From Gemmatimonadaceae bacterium (GTDB lineage: Bacteria; Gemmatimonadota; Gemmatimonadetes; Gemmatimonadales; Gemmatimonadaceae): DNA of 64,000 nucleotides. Location: the NCBI GenBank assembly GCA_019637355.1, contig JAHBVT010000001.1:2511192-2575191 (forward strand), written 5' to 3'. Shown here one piece after another: positions 27,219 through 35,873 of the stretch. Each line of letters starts with the position of its first letter. Within the stretch, counting starts at the first letter, position 1. The translations under genes were made by a program, and so were the position numbers. The notes below the pieces were generated by a model. The model saw nothing but the letters and a program-made list of their open reading frames with translations, was not told where the DNA came from and made no database searches.

Positions 27219-27734
27219 ATGAAGTTCACTCCAGCGCAGGTAGCCAAGACATGGAATCGCGTCATGGAGAGTTCGCCGAAGGAGTGGGCGAAGCTTGAGG
27301 CGCGCTCCGGCCCGTTCCAGGATGAGCTGACGGGCTTCGTGTTGGGGTTCACGTATCAGCTCAGCGATGACGCACAGGAGCTGGCGCGAGACTGCATGGT
27401 CGCGTGCTACGAGATCTACCGCGAGCACTTCCCCGTCATCCGCAAGGCGACGGATGAGCAGATCATGGCGCACTGGCAACGGTGTCGCGCACGCATCGCG
27501 GACGCGGAGGCGCTGACCGATGCGGGGGCGCCGCTGCAGCAAATGTACGGCGGCTCGCCCCAGCCCCTCCTGTTCGAGGCGGTAATCGATGGCCTCCTCC
27601 CGCCCGATCCCGATGAATTGGACGCGGAGGAGGCGTACGCGCTCGACGATGAGGAGTTCTGGGACGTGCTCGCCGTGCTCGACACCGTCATTGCCGTCCT
27701 CGATGAGTGCGCCCAGACGGCTCCTGCGCCATAA
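27219..27734 (+). CDS. Cassette-encoded protein of unknown function
   Basis: The 171-residue protein is soluble and acidic toward the C-terminus (PPDPDELDAEEAYALDDEEFWDVLAVLD). I recognise no family. The N-terminal half looks helical (FTPAQVAKTWNRVMESSPKEWAKL; VACYEIYREHFPVIRKATDEQIMAHW). The gene fills its cassette: it starts 18 bases after attC2 and its stop is the TAA of attC3. Confidence 0.75.
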   Translation: MKFTPAQVAKTWNRVMESSPKEWAKLEARSGPFQDELTGFVLGFTYQLSDDAQELARDCMVACYEIYREHFPVIRKATDEQIMAHWQRCRARIADAEALTDAGAPLQQMYGGSPQPLLFEAVIDGLLPPDPDELDAEEAYALDDEEFWDVLAVLDTVIAVLDECAQTAPAP

Positions 27735-27867
27735 CGACGCTTGCTGCCGACAGCTGCGGGTGCGGAAGCAGTTGTGGGGCGGCCGCCCTGTAGGGCATGG
27801 GACGGCCTAGCGGCCGCCCCACAACTGCGTCTTATTGGAGCAGCTGCAGCAGAAGCACACGTTATCG
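27729..27867 (+). repeat. attC3
   Basis: R'' CCATAAC to R' GTTATCG with the TAGCGGCCGCCCCACAACTGC-type long arm. It supplies the stop codon of the gene at 27219. Confidence 0.92.
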
Positions 27868-28104
27868 CGACTTGTGCCGGGGGACAGGCGATCCGCTGCA
27901 TGCGCGTCGCGGGAAGTGCGTCGTGATCCGCAAGTTCGTCGCCAGTGCTTTGGGGGTCCACGCCGAACGGTTCCGCGCGCGTGTGTCCCGCCAGATGCCG
28001 CGACCTGCGGACGGAGCCTGGCGGACGACCCAGGCCGCTCGACGGGCATGGCTTACGCATCCCGCGCGGTTTGTGCGCTCCGCCGCGCGCGCCGACGACG
28101 CGCG
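27868..28104 (+). repeat. Noncoding cassette, family B copy 1
   Basis: 237 bases, beginning CGACTTGTGCCGGGGGAC and ending in Arg-codon-like GCGCG runs before attC4. Six further copies exist in the window. No frame has a start codon with a ribosome binding site. Confidence 0.75.
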
Positions 28105-28243
28105 CGATAACGACGCTTGCTGCCGACAGCTGCGGCTAGGGAAGCAGTTGTGGGGCGGCCACCCTGTAGGGCATGGGACGGCCTAGCGGCCGCCCCACAA
28201 CTGCATCTTATTGAAGCAGCTGCAGCAGAAGCTCACGTTATCG
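28105..28243 (+). repeat. attC4
   Basis: R'' CGATAAC to R' GTTATCG, long-arm type; almost identical to attC5 and attC6. Confidence 0.92.
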
Positions 28244-28480
28244 CGACTCGTGCCGGGGGACAGGCGATCCGCTGCATTCGCGTCGCGGGAAGTGCGTCGT
28301 GATCCGCAAGTTCGTCGCCAGTGCTTTGGGGGTCCGCGCCGAATGGTTCTGCGTGTGAGTGTCCCGCCAGATGCCGCGACCTGCGGACGGAGCCTGGCGG
28401 ATGACCCAGGCCGCTCGACGGGCATGGCTTACGCATCCCGCGCGGTTTGTGCGCTCCGCCGCGCGCGCCGACGACGCGCG
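28244..28480 (+). repeat. Noncoding cassette, family B copy 2
   Basis: 237 bases, nearly identical to copies 1 and 3. Copies 1-3 with their attC sites form a tandem array with a 376-bp period. Confidence 0.75.
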
Positions 28481-28619
28481 CGATAACGACGCTTGCTGCC
28501 GACAGCTGCGGCTAGGGAAGCAGTTGTGGGGCGGCCACCCTGTAGGGCATGGGACGGCCTAGCGGCCGCCCCACAACTGCATCTTATTGAAGCAGCTGCA
28601 GCAGAAGCTCACGTTATCG
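28481..28619 (+). repeat. attC5
   Basis: R'' CGATAAC to R' GTTATCG; 376 bases after attC4 and nearly identical to it. Confidence 0.92.
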
Positions 28620-28856
28620 CGACTTGTGCCGGGGGACAGGCGATCCGCAGCATTCGCGTCGCGGGAAGTGCGTCGTGATCCGCAAGTTCGTCGCCAGTGC
28701 TTTGGGGGTCCGCGCCGAATGGTTCTGCGTGTGAGTGTCCCGCCAGATGCCGCGACCTGCGGACGGAGCCTGGCGGACGACCCAGGCCGCTCGACGGGCA
28801 TGGCTTACGCATCCCGCGCGGTTTGTGCGCTCCGCCGCGCGCGCCGACGACGCGCG
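28620..28856 (+). repeat. Noncoding cassette, family B copy 3
   Basis: 237 bases, differing from copy 2 at only a few positions; a recent duplication. Confidence 0.75.
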
Positions 28857-28995
28857 CGATAACGACGCTTGCTGCCGACAGCTGCGGCTAGGGAAGCAGT
28901 TGTGGGGCGGCCACCCTGTAGGGCATGGGACGGCCTAGCGGCCGCCCCACAACTGCATCTTATTGAAGCAGCTGCAGCAGAAGCTCACGTTATAC
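28857..28995 (+). repeat. attC6
   Basis: R'' CGATAAC to R' GTTATAC. The IS30 element begins about 5 bases after this core site. Confidence 0.92.
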
Positions 28996-29000
28996 GGACT

Positions 29001-30221
29001 GGATTCAAAGGGTCGATGCAACACCTTCATTAGTACTCTCCTTGGAGGTAGTTGCGATGTTCATCCCTAGCCCACACGGCTACACCTGGCAGCAGCGCGC
29101 AGAATTGTGGGCGCGCTACCGTGCCGGTGACTCGGTCCGCGAGATTGCCCGCGACCTCGCGAAGGATCCCGGCGCGCTCCACGGCGTGATTCGCCTGCAG
29201 GGCGGCATCGCGCCGCGCTTGCGTGCGCGATCCGCGTTGGCCCTCTCGCTCGAGGAGCGCGAACTCATCTCGCGCGCACTGGCCGCGGGGCACTCCTATC
29301 GCGCGATCGGTCGCACGCTCGGCCGCGCCGCCTCGACCATCAGTCGTGAAGTGGCGCGACACGGCGGGCGCACCGCGTATCGCGCCGTGCGGGCCGACGA
29401 CGTCGCATGGCAATCCGCGCGTCGGCCGAAGGCGTGCCGACTGGCGTCACGCCCGCGGCTCCGGTATCTCATTGCAGCGAAGCTGAAGCGCAACTGGTCC
29501 CCCGAGCAGATCAGCGGATGGTTGCGCACGACGTACCCTGCTACGCCGGAACTCCACGTGTCGCACGAGACGATCTATCGCTCGCTGTATGTCCAAGCGC
29601 GCGGGGTCTTGAAGAAGGAGCTGATGAAGCACCTGCGCACGCGACGCGTGGCACGGCGCGCGCGCGCGTCCACGCGCAAAGGCCAAGGGCGCGGCCGCAT
29701 CGTCGATGCGATCCCGATCAGCGCGCGCCCCGCGGAGGTGGAGGACCGGGCCGTGCCGGGCCACTGGGAAGGTGACTTGCTCGCGGGCGGCGGGAACACG
29801 CATATCGCGACGCTCGTCGAACGCACGTCGCGCTTCACCATCCTCATCAAGGTCGCGAGCAAGGAACCGGCGAGCGTCGTGCCCGCACTCATCCGCCAGA
29901 TTCGCCGACTCCCGACGCACGTGACGCGCTCGCTCACGTGGGACCGCGGCACCGAGCTCGCCCACCACAAGCGCTTCACCATCGCGACCGGCGTGCAAGT
30001 CTACTTCTGTGATCCCTCGAGTCCGTGGCAGCGCGGCAGCAACGAGAACACGAACGGCCTCCTCCGCCAATACTTCCGCACCGGCGCGAGCCTCGCCAAC
30101 GTTACGCAGCGCGACTTGAATCGCGTCGCCGACCAGCTCAACGGACGCCCGCGCAAGACGCTCCAGTTCCAAACCCCCGCGGCCGTCTTCGACGCCGCTG
30201 TTGCATTGATTGCTTGAATTC
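29001..30221 (+). mobile_element. IS30-family insertion sequence
   Basis: Imperfect terminal inverted repeats of about 23 bp flank the transposase: GATTCAA...GATGCAACA at 29001-29023 and its complement TGTTGCATTGA...TTGAATTC at 30199-30221. No target duplication is obvious. The element lies directly after the attC6 core site. Confidence 0.85.
29057..30217 (+). CDS. IS30-family transposase
   Basis: The 386-residue DDE transposase has an N-terminal helix-turn-helix region (AELWARYRAGDSVREIARDL; YRAIGRTLGRAASTISREVARHG) and an rve-type core. The triad lies in GHWEGDLLAG (D), SLTWDRGTELAHH (D) and GSNENTNGLLRQYF (E), the typical IS30 arrangement. I choose the ATG at 29057 because GGAGG at 29044-29048 is well spaced before it; a TTG at 29042 is in frame upstream. 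It appears intact. Confidence 0.93.
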   Translation: MFIPSPHGYTWQQRAELWARYRAGDSVREIARDLAKDPGALHGVIRLQGGIAPRLRARSALALSLEERELISRALAAGHSYRAIGRTLGRAASTISREVARHGGRTAYRAVRADDVAWQSARRPKACRLASRPRLRYLIAAKLKRNWSPEQISGWLRTTYPATPELHVSHETIYRSLYVQARGVLKKELMKHLRTRRVARRARASTRKGQGRGRIVDAIPISARPAEVEDRAVPGHWEGDLLAGGGNTHIATLVERTSRFTILIKVASKEPASVVPALIRQIRRLPTHVTRSLTWDRGTELAHHKRFTIATGVQVYFCDPSSPWQRGSNENTNGLLRQYFRTGASLANVTQRDLNRVADQLNGRPRKTLQFQTPAAVFDAAVALIA

Positions 30222-30527: not shown

Positions 30528-31088
30528 TCAGGGCGACTGCTTCCCTGCGATAACTGGCGCGGCTTTGGTTCTAGGGTCGAAAGCAACGCTGAAGTGGTAG
30601 ACACGGCCGGAAGCCACGGAAATCACCTGAGTCGAAGTCAAGAACGTTCCGTTTGCTTGCTCACTTCCAGCACGGACCGCGGCATCAGATCTTGTCGATG
30701 TTGCCGTCAGTGCAATGTTGTATGTTCCGCTGTCAGCCGCGGGTATGGTGATGACAAACACCTGCGCCTCGTCCTCATCTGCCTCCGGAGCCTCGTCTCC
30801 ATCGATGATCCCACCCGGAATCTCGATCAGTGTCGCATCACCAGGTGCGCGTTGTCCTATTCGTCGGCCCTGCGCATCCGTGACGAGCAACACCCCACCA
30901 ACTGCGGTCAGAACTAGTTGGCGGATGTCCGTGCTAGCGGGCGAGGCAGGTTGGGCGGAGAGTGCGTCGTCTGCCGCGCGCGGTACATCAGCATGCGCTT
31001 CGTGAGCCACTGTTGTGGCTTTGCCATCCTCGCGGCATCCGACGAGGAGCGATCCTGCGAGCAGAACAAAGGGAGCGACGATACGCAT
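30528..31088 (-). CDS. Small lipoprotein with a duplicated extracellular beta domain
   Basis: The protein has 186 residues and a lipobox (SLLVGC, C18). The segment from about 58 to 180 (LTAVGGVLLVTDAQGRRIGQ; IEIPGGIIDGDEAP; AQVFVITIPAADSGTYNIALTATS) is homologous to the middle of the large lipoprotein next to it (LTVVGGTLRVTDPQGRSIGQ; NEIPGGLVDDDEAP). It lies 36 bases after that gene on the same strand, so the two form an operon. Both run against the direction of the array. The function is unknown; it may be a secreted partner or decoy sharing the same ligand-binding domain. Confidence 0.7.
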   Translation of the reverse strand: MRIVAPFVLLAGSLLVGCREDGKATTVAHEAHADVPRAADDALSAQPASPASTDIRQLVLTAVGGVLLVTDAQGRRIGQRAPGDATLIEIPGGIIDGDEAPEADEDEAQVFVITIPAADSGTYNIALTATSTRSDAAVRAGSEQANGTFLTSTQVISVASGRVYHFSVAFDPRTKAAPVIAGKQSP

Positions 31089-31124
31089 CGTTGAACTCCA
31101 ATCAAGTGGGGTCGGGGGTCAACA

Positions 31125-33314
31125 CTAGTTCACCACGGTCCATAGCGCTGGAACAGCCGGAGGAATCCACCCCGGCAGAGACTGATGCCCTTGAATTGCA
31201 CGATAGCGGATTCCAAGGTAGAGCACCTCCGCCCCCGTCGGATAGATTACCTGAGGCGCCCACATTTCTCCGGCGTTGATTCGTGCCCACAGGGCGTACA
31301 CATTGGGCGGTTGCCAATTTGCGAGAGAAGTGTGTGCTTGCCGCGCTTGGTAGTCCTTGTTGTTAAACGAGACTCGAGCGCCTGCCGCGTAGTAGGTGTT
31401 CGCAGACCAAGGAGCGAGAGTCGACGGAGCTACAGCAGGAGCGCTTCCTGAAGAAGGATCGAACGGCACTTCAAAACTGTAAGCCGTGCCCGCGACAGCA
31501 GACAGCGAGGATGCGCTGTTAAGGAAGGAGCCATCTGCTTGCTCGATTGCCGCTCGAACCGAAGCGGTCGCCAAACTGGAGGTTGCTGTGAATACTAGGC
31601 GATAGGTCCCGCCAATCGGCTCGGGAATCGAAATCACGGACACTTGCGCCTCCGCGACTTCGAACTCGTTACCTTGCGATGCTGGAGCTTCATCGTCATC
31701 AACCAAGCCGCCCGGGATTTCGTTAGTAATGGCGCCACCTCGCGTGGTCTGGCCAATTGAACGACCCTGGGGATCCGTTACTCTCAGCGTCCCTCCAACC
31801 ACAGTGAGAATTAATCGCGGCTGCGCAGACGCGACGATGGCTGGCGAAGCCAAAGTGGAAGTTGGTGGTGCGCTCGAAACAGCGTAGCCGCGCAGCTGAA
31901 ACGACCCGTAGGGTTCGAGAGTACCGTCGCTTAGGCTCGGTGCAGGATCAGCGATTGTGAACTCGCTGAGCGATGTGGTTTCTGTTGCATTCCGAGGAGC
32001 CCCCGTGACCACGACGAAGTGAAACCCGCCACTTGTTGCGAGCGATGGCACTCGCACGACAACTGGGTAGCCAGCGCAGACGGACGCTGCAAGCTGCGTT
32101 CGCGGATTGGTTTGTCCCAAACTGACCCATCGCAAACTGCCGCCAGAGAAGGACGGGACTGTTGACTGCCAGTACACTGCTGAACCGCTATAGCCTTCGT
32201 TCGCTATCATGAAGGTGTTCAAGGAGTCAGGCTGCACTGCGTAGCCCGCTGCCGTCAATGCCATCGCTAGAGACGTAAGGGCGCACCCTTTCCGCGCAAT
32301 TGTTGAATTTGTGTTGTCGTACGTGAGGCTTCCCCAAAGCGGATTGCCCTGCGTGTATGGAGTCACAGTGGCCTCGCATCGATCTTCGGCGGGCGGAGTC
32401 CCGATGGACACTGAGTACGCCACGTAGTCGAGGGGTGCCGGCACCAAGACGATTCGGTCGAACGGGCCGGCCACGGTCTTCGTATCGGGCAGATTCACTC
32501 CTCCCTGACCAGAGAAGGCAAAGTCTTGACGAGAGACTTCCACTTCTCCGAGATAGGCGACGACTTGGTTGCCAGCCAACGATGGATCTTCAACAGTCAC
32601 CGTGGCTGTTGAGACTGTGTCGGAAAAGGAAATCGTGATTTCTTCCGAGATTCCCGTGCCTTCCTGACTCTGAAAGTCACCGAATGGATCGCCGGGCGCG
32701 AAGGGGCTGATAGTCCACTGTGTGTTGCCACAGGTACCGGCTTCTGTAATCAGCCTGCAACCGGACGCATCATCTTCACTGTTGGCACGCATCGTTGTTG
32801 CTGTCGACCACGGGGCGACCAGGGACGAAATCTTCGCCCTAGTGTGCATTCGCAGCTCGAAGCGTCCACCGATAGCACGCTCAACATTGGATTCGAGCCA
32901 AATGCTGAGAACCTCGTCGTACCCTGTCAACTCATGTACTACAGGCACGAGGGTCAACTGGCTCAGCCTGATTCTCTCAACGCTTCCTTCCGCTACAACT
33001 CGCAAGAATGCGTCCCGGCCTGCAGCTGAGAGCACGCTGTCGTCAGACACGACCTGAAGGCGAATGAGTTGCCCGGGCTTCCCAACCAATCGCACTTGCG
33101 CGAGGCGAAGAAGCCTTCCGGCGGAATCTGGCTTGGGGATGGCGCCGGCAAGAGGTGCCGGAGACGCAACCAACTCACATCCGGATCGGCAGTCGACGAT
33201 ACCTAGGTCATCCAAATACTCGACTGGTGCTGGCGGAGCGTCAGCGCACGCTGCCATCAGGGCACACGTAGCAACCAAGGTGGTGCGTCGAAGCGAATAG
33301 GGCGTCTGATGCAT
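31125..33314 (-). CDS. Large lipoprotein with C39-like peptidase domain and two CBM5/12-type modules
   Basis: A protein of 729 residues from the ATG at 33314, which follows a good GGAGG. It has a lipobox (LMAAC, C23) and about 290 residues of beta-rich sequence. Next comes a papain-like C39_2-type domain (catalytic Cys in KGCALTSLAMAL, His in GGFHFVVVTGA), then the domain shared with the small lipoprotein at 30528. The C-terminus carries two carbohydrate-binding modules of the CBM5/12 chitin-binding kind (PWSANTYYAAGARVSFNNKD; YPTGAEVLYLGIRYRAIQGH). This suggests a surface enzyme that binds polysaccharide and cleaves or matures peptides. Base use is lower in GC than the host genes. Confidence 0.75.
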   Translation of the reverse strand: MHQTPYSLRRTTLVATCALMAACADAPPAPVEYLDDLGIVDCRSGCELVASPAPLAGAIPKPDSAGRLLRLAQVRLVGKPGQLIRLQVVSDDSVLSAAGRDAFLRVVAEGSVERIRLSQLTLVPVVHELTGYDEVLSIWLESNVERAIGGRFELRMHTRAKISSLVAPWSTATTMRANSEDDASGCRLITEAGTCGNTQWTISPFAPGDPFGDFQSQEGTGISEEITISFSDTVSTATVTVEDPSLAGNQVVAYLGEVEVSRQDFAFSGQGGVNLPDTKTVAGPFDRIVLVPAPLDYVAYSVSIGTPPAEDRCEATVTPYTQGNPLWGSLTYDNTNSTIARKGCALTSLAMALTAAGYAVQPDSLNTFMIANEGYSGSAVYWQSTVPSFSGGSLRWVSLGQTNPRTQLAASVCAGYPVVVRVPSLATSGGFHFVVVTGAPRNATETTSLSEFTIADPAPSLSDGTLEPYGSFQLRGYAVSSAPPTSTLASPAIVASAQPRLILTVVGGTLRVTDPQGRSIGQTTRGGAITNEIPGGLVDDDEAPASQGNEFEVAEAQVSVISIPEPIGGTYRLVFTATSSLATASVRAAIEQADGSFLNSASSLSAVAGTAYSFEVPFDPSSGSAPAVAPSTLAPWSANTYYAAGARVSFNNKDYQARQAHTSLANWQPPNVYALWARINAGEMWAPQVIYPTGAEVLYLGIRYRAIQGHQSLPGWIPPAVPALWTVVN

Positions 33315-33657
33315 GAGTACCTCCTGTGAGGTGCAATTCTGGTGCGGGGTCATTGTTGTGGCAAGTCGCCGTTGCCGACTAAGCCTAGAAGCCGGGAGCG
33401 GGCGGACTTCCCGGAGAACCGCACAATCGGCCTGGTCTACGTGGCGGCTATCCGAACGGCAATCTGCCAGTGTTCGGGTACTGTCGCGGTGGGCGACGCC
33501 ACCAGCCTCGCGGAGGTGCTGGGCATACCTCGTGTGCGCCGTATAACGACGCTTGCTGCCGACAAGCGCGGCTAGTGTAGCGGTTGTGGGGCCACCGCTC
33601 CACTTTTATGGAAGGACTGCGGCGGCCCCACAACCGCATTTTTCTGTGAAGCGGCGG

Positions 33658-33904
33658 CCCGCGTCAAGCCCCAGGTGCGTTGACGCTGTTGCAGTTCTCC
33701 GTTGTGCCTGCGCTGCTCGAGGTGCTGCTCATCCTTCTGTTCGCGCTCGCTCGTGAGGCCCGAGGCCTCGGCGCATTGGGGTCTGCGAAGGAATGGTGGC
33801 GCCAACTATGGGGCGGCTCTCACCTGCGGCCATAAAATGCGTCGCGCTCACCACTCCCGATTCAGTCATCTCGATCCCACGCAGGTCCTGCCCTTACCCA
33901 GCGA
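33658..33904 (-). ncRNA. Predicted guide RNA region (bridge RNA/seekRNA) of IS1111-type copy 1
   Basis: This 247-base noncoding end lies downstream of the transposase gene, where IS1111 elements encode their guide RNA. On the transposase strand, 33841-33830 reads CGCATTTTATGG, identical to the uninterrupted attC target. The segment 33802-33811 (CCAACTATGG on the plus strand) equals the right element-target junction. Confidence 0.65.
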
Positions 33905-34948
33905 TCATGCGGCGGACGCCGGCACGGGCTGCGGCGTCCGCAGGTGGCCCGCGTCGTACGCCCGCTGGTCCCGCCACATCGCATAGAGGATGCCCGCGAG
34001 CCGCCGCGCCAGCGCGACCGCCGCGATCTTCGTGCCGCGGCGATGCAGGATGCGCTGCGCCCACGCCCGCAACACCGCGGTGTCGCTTGACTTGGAGCGG
34101 AGGATGCGCCACGCCGCCTCGACCAGGAGATAGCGCGCGCGCCGGTTGCCCGCCTTCGTGATGTGGCCGAGTCGCCGCTTCTCGCCCGAGCTCCGCTCCC
34201 CGGGCACCAACCCGAGGAAGGCCTCGAACTGGTGCGCCGACGGGAACCGGCCGATGTCATCCGCGATCGCGACGATGCCGCTGGACGTCACCGGCCCGAC
34301 GGCGGGGGCCGTCTGCAGCAGCGCGACGATCGGGTCCGTCCGCCCGAGCGCCGCGATGCGCGCGTCGGCGGCCGCGATCTGCACGTTCAGCGGGGCGAGC
34401 ACCGCGATCAAGGGCGCCAGCTCGGCCGCCAGCACCGGCGAGAGCGGGAGCGCGGTGAGTCGTTCGACAAACCACGCGGCCGTGCTGTTCGGCACGCGCA
34501 GGCCGTCGCGGCGCACGAGGGCCTTGGCGAGCGCGATGCATCGCGTGCGTGTGCGGACCAAGGCCTCGCGCACCGCCAACTCGGCGCGCACATGCCGCCG
34601 CGCCGCCGAGACGCGGTGCGCCGGACGATAGGCGCCGAGCCGGAGCGCGTCAGCCAGGGTCCGCGCATCGCGCTTGTCCGTCTTCACCCGCCGGCTGCGC
34701 GTGGCGTACATCGGCGCGAAGTTCGGGTCGGCGACGACCACCTCGTGGCCCAGCGCCTCCAGGTGACACGCGACCCACTCGCTCTCGGTCGACGCCTCGA
34801 CGAGGATCCGCGCGGGCGGACGCGCGCCCAGCACCGCGGTGAAGCGGTCACGGCTCGTGACGATGCGTCGTTCGGTGACGCCGCCCTGCCCGTCGAGGAT
34901 GCAGAGCTGGCTCTCGCGCTTGTGGAGATCGATGCCTATCATATCCAT
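33905..34948 (-). CDS. IS110-family (IS1111 group) DEDD recombinase, copy 1
   Basis: The 347-residue transposase starts at the ATG 34948 with GGAGG upstream. The RuvC-like N-terminal domain carries the acidic residues in IGIDLHKRESQL, ILVEASTESEWV and KTDKRDARTLAD. The C-terminal transposase_20 domain contains the serine motif GLVPGERSSGEKRRLGHITKAGNRRARYLL. It appears intact and is nearly identical to copy 3. Confidence 0.95.
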   Translation of the reverse strand: MDMIGIDLHKRESQLCILDGQGGVTERRIVTSRDRFTAVLGARPPARILVEASTESEWVACHLEALGHEVVVADPNFAPMYATRSRRVKTDKRDARTLADALRLGAYRPAHRVSAARRHVRAELAVREALVRTRTRCIALAKALVRRDGLRVPNSTAAWFVERLTALPLSPVLAAELAPLIAVLAPLNVQIAAADARIAALGRTDPIVALLQTAPAVGPVTSSGIVAIADDIGRFPSAHQFEAFLGLVPGERSSGEKRRLGHITKAGNRRARYLLVEAAWRILRSKSSDTAVLRAWAQRILHRRGTKIAAVALARRLAGILYAMWRDQRAYDAGHLRTPQPVPASAA

Positions 34949-35123
34949 GGCGGCTGGCCTCCGCAGTGTGCCCCGTCGCGAGACGGTGAGCACGGTAGAT
35001 GGTATGGGGCAGAACCTTGCACCCGTGGATGGGCGGAGGTCCAGCCGCCGCTTCATACCAACTATGGAAGCGCTTGCAGCAGAAGCAAACGTTATCGGGA
35101 CCATCCCAACATCCGTGTAAAGC

Positions 35124-35873
35124 ATGCGCCTCTACGACAAGGATGGGCACGAGATTACAGACTGGCGCAAATGGACGCGGCCCAAGGAAGACTATCAATG
35201 GAAGGCGGGTCGCAGCGCGATGGAGCTTGCACGCTCTTGGTTCACTGCTCCGCAGCCCGTGCTCCCGGCCGAGGTTCGCGAGCTCCTCGACTCGCACCCC
35301 GACACTCGCGATGCGGAGTTCGTGAAGGGATGGCCCGAGCTTGTGACCAAGCTTCCGTTCCCCGGCGAGGGGCGCAATCACGACTTGGTTGCGGTTGGGA
35401 CCGCCGGCCGGTACCGACTGTTGCTTGCCGTTGAGGGAAAGGTCGACGAGCCGCTCGGCGACCTGATCGGCAGCTACTGGCGGAAGTCAAAGAGATCCGA
35501 GAAGTCGAAGGCGTGGAAGCGCATTGACTCTCTCCTTGACGCGGCGTTCGGTCCGAGCGCTCTCGCGACTGACAAGCCGTGGAGTGATCTGCGCTACCAA
35601 CTGCTGACGGCTCTAGTAGGCACCGCAATCGAGGCCGAGAAGCAGGAGTGCAAACTCGCAGTGCTCTGTATCCAAGAGTTTGTGACGCAGTCGGCGGATC
35701 CTGACAAGATCAAAGCGAATGGGGAGGCCCTCTCACAGTTCGTGCGTACGCTGGGTGCGCGCCCACCGAAGGCAGGGGGACTCGCCGGGCCCTTTCCCGT
35801 CCGAGTTCCAGGATCGGACGCGATCATTCCTGTTTTCGTTGGCAAGGCACAATATCGGTGGGCGGCCCGATAA
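35124..35873 (+). CDS. Cassette-encoded protein of unknown function (possibly DUF6946-like)
   Basis: A soluble protein of 249 residues. WKAGRSAMELARSWF near the N-terminus, LPFPGEGRNHDLVAVG, and RYRLLLAVEGKVDEPLGD suggest an enzyme-like fold; the VEGKVDE strand resembles PD-(D/E)XK-type cores, but I cannot confirm a nuclease. The nearest family I can suggest is DUF6946, with low certainty. The stop codon is the TAA of attC8. Confidence 0.7.
   Translation: MRLYDKDGHEITDWRKWTRPKEDYQWKAGRSAMELARSWFTAPQPVLPAEVRELLDSHPDTRDAEFVKGWPELVTKLPFPGEGRNHDLVAVGTAGRYRLLLAVEGKVDEPLGDLIGSYWRKSKRSEKSKAWKRIDSLLDAAFGPSALATDKPWSDLRYQLLTALVGTAIEAEKQECKLAVLCIQEFVTQSADPDKIKANGEALSQFVRTLGARPPKAGGLAGPFPVRVPGSDAIIPVFVGKAQYRWAAR

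What the first reader, a model, noticed from the sequence alone, without database searches (positions are those of the whole stretch)
30528..33314. Lipoprotein pair with a shared domain, C39-like peptidase and chitin-binding-type modules in the array
The small lipoprotein is homologous to the central part of the large one, which also carries a papain-like GCALTS domain and two CBM5/12-type modules. The two form an operon against the array direction. The layout (binder plus protease with a common domain) could be a surface-acting toxin, adhesin or processing system.
Basis: partly seen in the sequence, partly recalled or inferred. Interest (0 to 1): 0.52.

Follow-up and report, generated by a model that had tools for sequence, protein, structure and literature searches.

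The report
Modular lipoprotein peptidase with lipoprotein partner
A bacterium of the phylum Gemmatimonadota carries, in a mobile gene array, a membrane-anchored papain-like peptidase next to a small membrane-anchored partner, and relatives of its front part carry other peptidase-like domains with other partner genes, a layout like that of bacterial weapon-and-antidote pairs, though no toxic activity has been shown.

Summary
On the minus strand lie a 729-aa lipoprotein (31125-33314) and a 186-aa lipoprotein (30528-31088), 36 bp apart, inside an attC-type cassette array whose repeats all point the other way. The large protein has a Peptidase_C39_2 domain (above Pfam cut-off; papain-like fold; conserved Q-C-H-D), a domain 51% identical to the small protein, and two CBM5/12 modules.

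New: its ~290-aa N-terminal module, unknown to Pfam, is found in 7 Gemmatimonadota genomes, fused to four different C-terminal domains (C39, M74/MepA-like, JAMM-like, one unassigned). In 6 of 6 testable cases a gene for a secreted protein follows within 36 bp. For the M74-like class the partner family follows the enzyme domain, not the N-terminus (6 of 6 enzymes); partners also occur without an enzyme nearby, in tandem or as mixed sets. That is the logic of polymorphic toxin-immunity systems, nearest to myxobacterial SitA lipoprotein toxins.

For this particular pair the link is weaker: C39 relatives have other partners or none, and the partner is a copy of a domain of the enzyme. I hold 'envelope-acting modular effector with cognate partner' at 0.45 against 'ordinary secreted hydrolase plus accessory lipoprotein' at 0.38. 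No toxicity has been tested.

The parts
31125..33314 (-). Large lipoprotein gene, 729 aa from ATG at 33314 (742 aa by the longest ORF, ending 33353)
   Evidence: Shine-Dalgarno AGGAGG 5 nt upstream of 33314
33246..33314 (-). Signal peptide with lipobox LMAAC; mature protein would start at Cys23
   Evidence: read from the translation; no signal-peptide program was run
32388..33248 (-). N-terminal module (~287 aa), no Pfam family; second half perhaps a jelly-roll
   Evidence: low-confidence model, weak match to ColG collagen-binding domain Z 5.2
31941..32324 (-). Peptidase_C39_2 domain; Q codon at 32349-32351 just before it, catalytic Cys codon 32283-32285, His 32019-32021, Asp 31947-31949
31428..31850 (-). 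Shared domain in the large protein
31287..31409 (-). First CBM_5_12 module
   Evidence: best stretch 649-689
31134..31259 (-). Second CBM_5_12 module (Pfam reports two stretches; limits set by eye)
30528..31088 (-). Small lipoprotein gene, 186 aa; lipobox LVGC
30546..30926 (-). Shared domain in the small lipoprotein; beta-sandwich model
28859..28993 (+). attC-like repeat at the left of the cassette
33543..35095 (+). attC-like repeat at the right, its two halves apart because an IS110-family element sits in it
29042..30217 (+). IS30-type transposase gene inside the same cassette
   Evidence: HTH_38, rve
33905..34950 (-). IS110/IS1111-type DEDD transposase gene (start taken as the Met near 34948)

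Best explanation
The large protein is a membrane-anchored papain-like cysteine peptidase, one member of a small modular family of Gemmatimonadota lipoproteins in which one N-terminal module carries interchangeable C-terminal peptidase-like domains, each encoded next to a secreted partner. The likeliest use is antagonism between bacteria: the lipoprotein reaches the envelope of a neighbour and its C39 domain cleaves an envelope protein or peptide, helped by the CBM5/12 modules, which may hold it to GlcNAc polymers such as peptidoglycan or chitin; the co-encoded lipoprotein protects the producer or controls the enzyme. Shown: gene layout, lipobox motifs, domains, conserved catalytic residues, predicted fold, modular fusion, tight linkage to a secreted partner, mobile-array context, foreign base composition. 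Inferred: transfer to other cells, target, toxicity, immunity. For the small protein I infer that, as a copy of the domain that sits right behind the peptidase, it binds the peptidase or its docking site in trans.
For: N-module in 8 of 288 genomes of the order; one of these (G241) has only its second half, after an M23 peptidase. The other seven carry four C-terminal classes: C39 (G000), JAMM-like (G042, G044), M74-like (G055, G244), and an unassigned HEG...NSHxG class (G252, G445). The next gene encodes a protein with a signal peptide or lipobox (by eye) in 6 of 6 cases that could be tested (G044 runs off its contig); distances from a 22-bp overlap to a 36-bp gap. Partner tracks enzyme: the M74-class partner family follows 6 of 6 M74-like lipoproteins found, four of which (G050, G376, G266, G283) have N-termini other than the full module. 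Partners of the HEG class in G252 and G445 are linked through a homologue in G196 (E 2e-12 and 7e-9). Partners without an enzyme in the fetched stretch: three tandem copies in G016, one in G156, and in G196 an M74-type next to a HEG-type partner; three tandem HEG-type partners after the enzyme in G252. G042 has a second JAMM-type partner preceded by what looks like the last 40-odd residues of a JAMM-class protein. The C39 fold resembles the papain-like toxin of a solved toxin/immunity pair, 9l5u, Z 11.0, though not better than ordinary C39 peptidases. GC of the genes is 58% and 60% against 67% for the window.
Against: No toxicity data of any kind. The C39-plus-shared-domain pair occurs in other phyla without an obvious partner: none seen next to G220/L049, L055, L056. 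In G011 and G283 the C39 gene is followed by an RCC1-repeat lipoprotein, not by a shared-domain one, so for the C39 class the partner does not track the enzyme. Free-standing shared-domain proteins exist without a C39 gene nearby (G059). The catalytic domain here is not at the very C-terminus: shared domain and CBMs follow. Only one N-module/C39 fusion is known (G000). No secretion or transfer machinery was looked for or identified. The JAMM and HEG classes rest on motifs read by eye; Pfam gave nothing for them. The G252 and G445 partners do not match each other directly.
Confidence: 0.45

Rival explanations
1. Ordinary secreted hydrolase: a surface lipoprotein peptidase that digests extracellular or cell-wall-bound protein, with carbohydrate-binding modules for attachment; the small lipoprotein is an accessory protein born by partial duplication.
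For: C39 plus shared domain occurs in Gemmatimonadota, Phycisphaerales, Deltaproteobacteria and Nitrospirae, once with a dockerin-like/PEP-CTERM-like end (by eye), mostly without a partner; other C39 relatives carry repeats that look like SH3 and dockerin domains (by eye); two CBM_5_12 modules fit a polymer-degrading enzyme.
Against: Does not explain the swapped C-termini on one N-module, the tight partner in 6 of 6, partners that follow the enzyme class, or tandem partners without enzyme.
Confidence: 0.38
2. Surface adhesin or processing system: the N-module and CBMs bind a surface, the peptidase matures the small lipoprotein or other surface proteins.
For: The jelly-roll half of the N-module weakly resembles collagenase collagen-binding domain 3B and the C-terminal domain of C. 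perfringens enterotoxin (Z about 5, low-confidence model); shared domain is a beta-sandwich.
Against: Z about 5 is within what unrelated beta-sandwiches give (note); no processing site was looked for in the small protein; the N-module travels with other enzyme classes.
Confidence: 0.12
3. Decaying cassette cargo with no present function, flanked by insertion elements.
For: IS30-type and IS110-type elements sit in the same cassette; foreign GC.
Against: Both frames are open with good ribosome-binding sites and all four catalytic residues are kept.
Confidence: 0.05

Closest known systems
SitA/SitI lipoprotein toxins of Myxococcus (eLife 2017 PMC5562445; mBio 2021 PMC8546572; passages read)
   Same: Lipoproteins; a conserved N-terminal part (~375 aa escort domain there, ~290 aa here) with different C-terminal domains; partner gene in an operon; mobile DNA.
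   Different: SitA C-termini described there are nucleases acting in the cytoplasm and transfer needs TraA/B; here they are peptidase-like, partners have signal peptides, and no transfer system is known. Sequence relation to SitA was not tested.
Cpe1/Cpi1, papain-like cysteine protease toxin and immunity protein (PLoS Biol 2025 PMC12136450; passages read)
   Same: Papain-like C-H-D peptidase; neighbouring gene encodes a partner; structural neighbour 9l5u (Z 11.0), whose title fits that paper, though the code is not in its text.
   Different: Cpe1 acts on GyrB/ParE and is delivered by T6SS or CDI; here a lipoprotein with CBMs.
Peptidase_C39_2 (PF13529) secreted peptidases
   Same: Domain, fold and catalytic residues.
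   Different: Fused to the N-module, shared domain and two CBM5/12 modules; next to a copy of the shared domain.
MepA / Peptidase_M74 (for the relatives with the same N-module)
   Same: Motif H-x2-G-x3-D and a late H in the M74-like class; best sub-threshold hits are M74 and MepA.
   Different: Lipoproteins with an Ig-like part and a dedicated partner; below curated cut-offs.

Membership tests
Peptidase_C39_2 (PF13529) | Score above the curated Pfam cut-off | tested here: met
   36.4 bits against 24
Peptidase_C39_2 (PF13529) | Papain-like catalytic Q, C, H, D | tested here: met
   Q, C, H invariant in 12 of 12 rows; D in 11 of 11 rows that reach it, the 12th ends at a contig edge
Peptidase_C39_2 (PF13529) | Papain-like fold | tested here: met
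   pLDDT blocks 81-96 over the domain; 3erv Z 13.7, 6mpz Z 12.8
Peptidase_C39 of bacteriocin ABC transporters (PF03412) | Peptidase fused to an ABC transporter | tested here: not met
   only CBM_5_12 and C39_2 found in the protein
CBM_5_12 (PF02839) | Score above the curated cut-off | tested here: met
   86.9 bits against 26.2, two stretches
Polymorphic toxin-immunity systems | One N-terminal region with different C-terminal domains | tested here: met
   four C-terminal classes on one N-module in seven genomes
Polymorphic toxin-immunity systems | Cognate partner gene directly downstream that tracks the C-terminal domain | tested here: inconclusive
   met for the M74-like class (6 of 6) and supported for the HEG class; not met for the C39 class, to which this pair belongs
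Polymorphic toxin-immunity systems | Toxic C-terminal domain neutralised by the partner | not testable with these tools
   needs an experiment
SitA lipoprotein toxins | Type II signal sequence with lipobox | tested here: met
   by eye in G000, G042, G044, G055, G252, G445; G244 is cut by its contig end
SitA lipoprotein toxins | Escort domain of one of the SitA families | not tested
   no SitA sequence was fetched
SitA lipoprotein toxins | C-terminal nuclease acting in the cytoplasm | tested here: not met
   C-terminal enzyme domain is a C39-type peptidase; so not filed as SitA
SitA lipoprotein toxins | Transfer by TraA/TraB outer membrane exchange | not tested
   no search for TraA/TraB was made
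Integron gene cassette | Flanked by attC-type repeats in one orientation; integron integrase in the genome | tested here: met
   TIGR02249 match above cut-off at G000:C1:784030, about 1.7 Mb away; attC folding was not tested

The most novel reading that the evidence does not exclude
Gemmatimonadota own a lineage of polymorphic lipoprotein effectors that attack the envelope of competitors with interchangeable peptidases (C39, M74-like, JAMM-like and one unknown) and carry secreted antidotes; some travel in integron cassettes. In this pair the antidote is a trans-acting copy of the enzyme's own neighbouring domain.
Probability: 0.35. Interest if true: 0.75.

Novelty: new variant of a known kind. 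Interest (0 to 1): 0.55.

Why it matters
Polymorphic toxins carried as lipoproteins are known to me only from myxobacteria. A second set in an abundant and little-studied phylum, with envelope-acting peptidases and partly carried by integron cassettes, would give unannotated cassette genes a role in conflict between bacteria. It is directly testable with two genes in laboratory E. coli. Two searches of the open-access papers library, for Gemmatimonadota with polymorphic toxin, and for Gemmatimonadetes with attC, integrase and cassette array, gave 0 papers each; nothing wider was searched.

Tried and rejected
Adhesin reading: the jelly-roll likeness to collagen-binding domains has Z about 5 in a stretch of the model with pLDDT blocks of 32-63, so it is not used. 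Shared domain identity: PDB profile search best E 0.13, Foldseek none at E 0.001, VIA best Z 7.1 to TerD-like proteins, within the range of unrelated sandwiches; left unnamed. N-module: no Pfam, NCBIfam or PADLOC family; PDB profile best E 0.13 to myocilin, taken as chance. Phage origin: no relatives in IMG/VR with A4 or A7, none among phages with the C39 part; on plasmids only CBM matches in 3 records. Rfam: nine matches at E 0.06-0.93, all far below gathering scores, rejected. Promoter and terminator scan: 2 and 3 sites against 1.0 and 2.8 expected, uninformative. Direct homology of G252 and G445 partners: hhalign probability 0.4%, not found; only a bridge through G196. JAMM-type partner elsewhere: 1 of 171 genomes, G042 itself.

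Limits of the counts: the partner profile hit 25 of 288 genomes, but most weak hits cover only its last ~80 residues, a common C-terminal domain; I opened 9 genomes (G055, G244, G156, G050, G016, G196, G376, G266, G283) with the strongest matches and did not open the partner hits of the other 16, among them G200 (query 190-258, E 1e-6). The fused enzymes were found through the partner search or the N-module search, so enzymes of this class without a partner would have been missed. ORFs were filtered by codon-position GC, so short or atypical neighbours could be missed.

Full report
What is there. Two minus-strand genes: a 729-aa lipoprotein (31125-33314) and, 36 bp downstream, a 186-aa lipoprotein (30528-31088). 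The large one reads, from its N-terminus: lipobox, a ~287-aa module without a Pfam family, Peptidase_C39_2 (36.4 bits, cut-off 24), a domain shared with the small protein, and two CBM_5_12 modules (86.9 bits, cut-off 26.2). The small one is lipobox, a low-confidence linker and the shared domain.

Where it lies. The pair sits in a large array of attC-like repeats: 30 matches for each repeat end in the 64-kb window, all on the + strand, so the pair reads against the array. The cassette runs from the repeat ending at 28993 to the repeat starting at 33543, whose far end (35076-35095) is displaced by an IS110-type element; an IS30-type element lies in the same cassette. The genes have 58% and 60% GC against 67% for the window. 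The genome has an integron integrase above the TIGR02249 cut-off, but about 1.7 Mb away. In a genome of the same genus (G011) a relative of the C39 gene, with an overlapping RCC1-repeat lipoprotein gene, also lies between repeats of the same type, there in the array direction. That the host is a Gemmatimonadota species is inferred from named records that are the same loci as genomes of its family.

The peptidase. Q, C and H are invariant in 12 of 12 aligned relatives and D in the 11 that reach it. In the AlphaFold2 model of the mature protein (12-row alignment, mean pLDDT 59.7 because the N-module and CBMs had no relatives in it) the C39 stretch is confident (blocks of 81-96) and VIA-align puts it nearest to a B. 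anthracis C39-like peptidase (3erv, Z 13.7), the PCAT transporter peptidase (6mpz, 12.8), the enzyme Alr0975 (2bu3, 12.3) and the toxin of a papain-like toxin/immunity pair (9l5u, 11.0).

The shared domain. It is a beta-sandwich (pLDDT around 90 over most of it) with no convincing PDB match. In the phylum sample it is in 9 of 395 genomes. It follows the C39 domain directly in G000, G011, G034, G220 and G283, and, of 15 relatives found among 84,980 species genomes, in L049, L050, L051, L052, L055 and L056, which include Phycisphaerales, Deltaproteobacteria and Nitrospirae; L054 is cut by its contig end and the other eight have C39 without it. L049, L050 and L052 are the same loci as G220, G034 and G283. 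Free-standing copies exist in G059, G345 and G379. So the domain is an old companion of this peptidase, and the small lipoprotein most simply a duplicate of it.

The N-terminal module. It is in 8 of 395 genomes of the phylum sample (one of them, G122, at E 2.8e-4 and doubtful) and 8 of 288 of the order sample. Seven genomes carry it in full or up to a contig end; G241 has only the second half, behind an M23 peptidase. Behind the module come different domains: C39 in G000; in G055 and G244 an Ig-like part and a domain with H-x2-G-x3-D and HxH motifs; in G042 and G044 a domain with HTH and PSxxDL motifs like JAMM peptidases; in G252 and G445 a domain with HEG...NSHxG. Naming: the first of these classes matches Peptidase_M74 in one relative at E 0.024 (below the cut-off) and, as a profile, MepA (1tzp) as the only PDB hit, at E 0.091, so M74-like is likely but not proven. 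JAMM-like rests on motifs recalled and read by eye.

Partners. In all six cases where the downstream end is on the contig, the next gene starts between 22 bp before and 36 bp after the stop and encodes a protein with a signal peptide or lipobox by eye. G055 and G244 partners are homologous (31-32%, E 4e-22 for the pair). A profile of these two found relatives beyond their common C-terminal domain in nine genomes including themselves (a tenth, G200, was not opened). In G050, G376, G266 and G283 the relative directly follows a protein with the same M74-like C-terminus but another N-terminus; N-terminal halves of these give at best a marginal match to the module (E 0.001), while all 15 pairs of C-terminal halves match one another (E 1e-6 to 5e-40). 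In G016 three tandem copies fill most of a 3,016-bp contig, in G156 one stands alone in the 7 kb fetched, and in G196 one is followed by a homologue of the G252/G445 partners. In G042 a second copy of the JAMM-class partner lies just behind what looks like the last 40-odd residues of a JAMM-class protein (E 6e-4 for that one stretch). Enzyme-specific partners, tandem partners and partner sets without enzymes are what toxin-immunity systems show; an accessory or chaperone role would not be expected to give lone tandem partners.

Back to the pair in hand. It shares the module and the layout. But the C39 class is the weak case: its relatives have an RCC1 lipoprotein (G011, G283) or no evident partner (G220, L055, L056), and shared-domain lipoproteins occur without C39. 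So the family-level case for effector and immunity is moderate, and for this pair it is an extrapolation.

Comparison with the literature. SitA toxins of myxobacteria are lipoproteins with family-defining N-terminal escort domains, modular C-terminal nucleases, an immunity gene in the operon and frequent location on mobile DNA (PMC8546572 and PMC5562445, passages read). Cpe1 is a papain-like protease toxin with an adjacent immunity gene, whose product blocks substrate binding (PMC12136450, passages read). A classification of papain-like enzymes notes C39_2 as single-domain peptidases with structural decorations (PMC10318531, passages read). This pair works most like SitA by layout but fails the SitA nuclease feature and was not tested for others, so it is not filed there.

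Verdict. Observation confirmed; interpretation partly supported and sharpened. New variant of a known kind if the effector reading holds; otherwise a decorated C39_2 peptidase with an accessory lipoprotein.

Noticed in passing
33543-35095: An IS110/IS1111-type element has gone into an attC-like repeat and parted its two halves; IS1111-type elements that pick attC sites are known (recalled; two 2024 papers on guided target choice seen in a search listing only). The guide RNA was not looked for.
   Followed up: partly
27726-29000: Successive 376-bp cassette units about 95% alike without a convincing gene.
   Followed up: no
26767-62942: Array of some thirty attC-like repeats with the only integron integrase above cut-off in the genome about 1.7 Mb away.
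   Followed up: partly
35124-35873: Cassette gene with a DUF6946 domain, 113 bits.
   Followed up: no
L039:7589-7830; C-termini of the C39 proteins in L004 and L024: A common ~80-aa C-terminal domain ends many proteins of the order, including C39 proteins of G034 and G220 and the G055 partner; perhaps an attachment or sorting domain.
   Followed up: no
L045:10532-11743 and L052:3184-4464: RCC1-repeat lipoprotein gene overlapping the end of the C39 gene by 4 bp in two genera.
   Followed up: partly
L097:3600-3719: Possible remnant of the end of a JAMM-class protein in front of a second partner gene in G042.
   Followed up: partly
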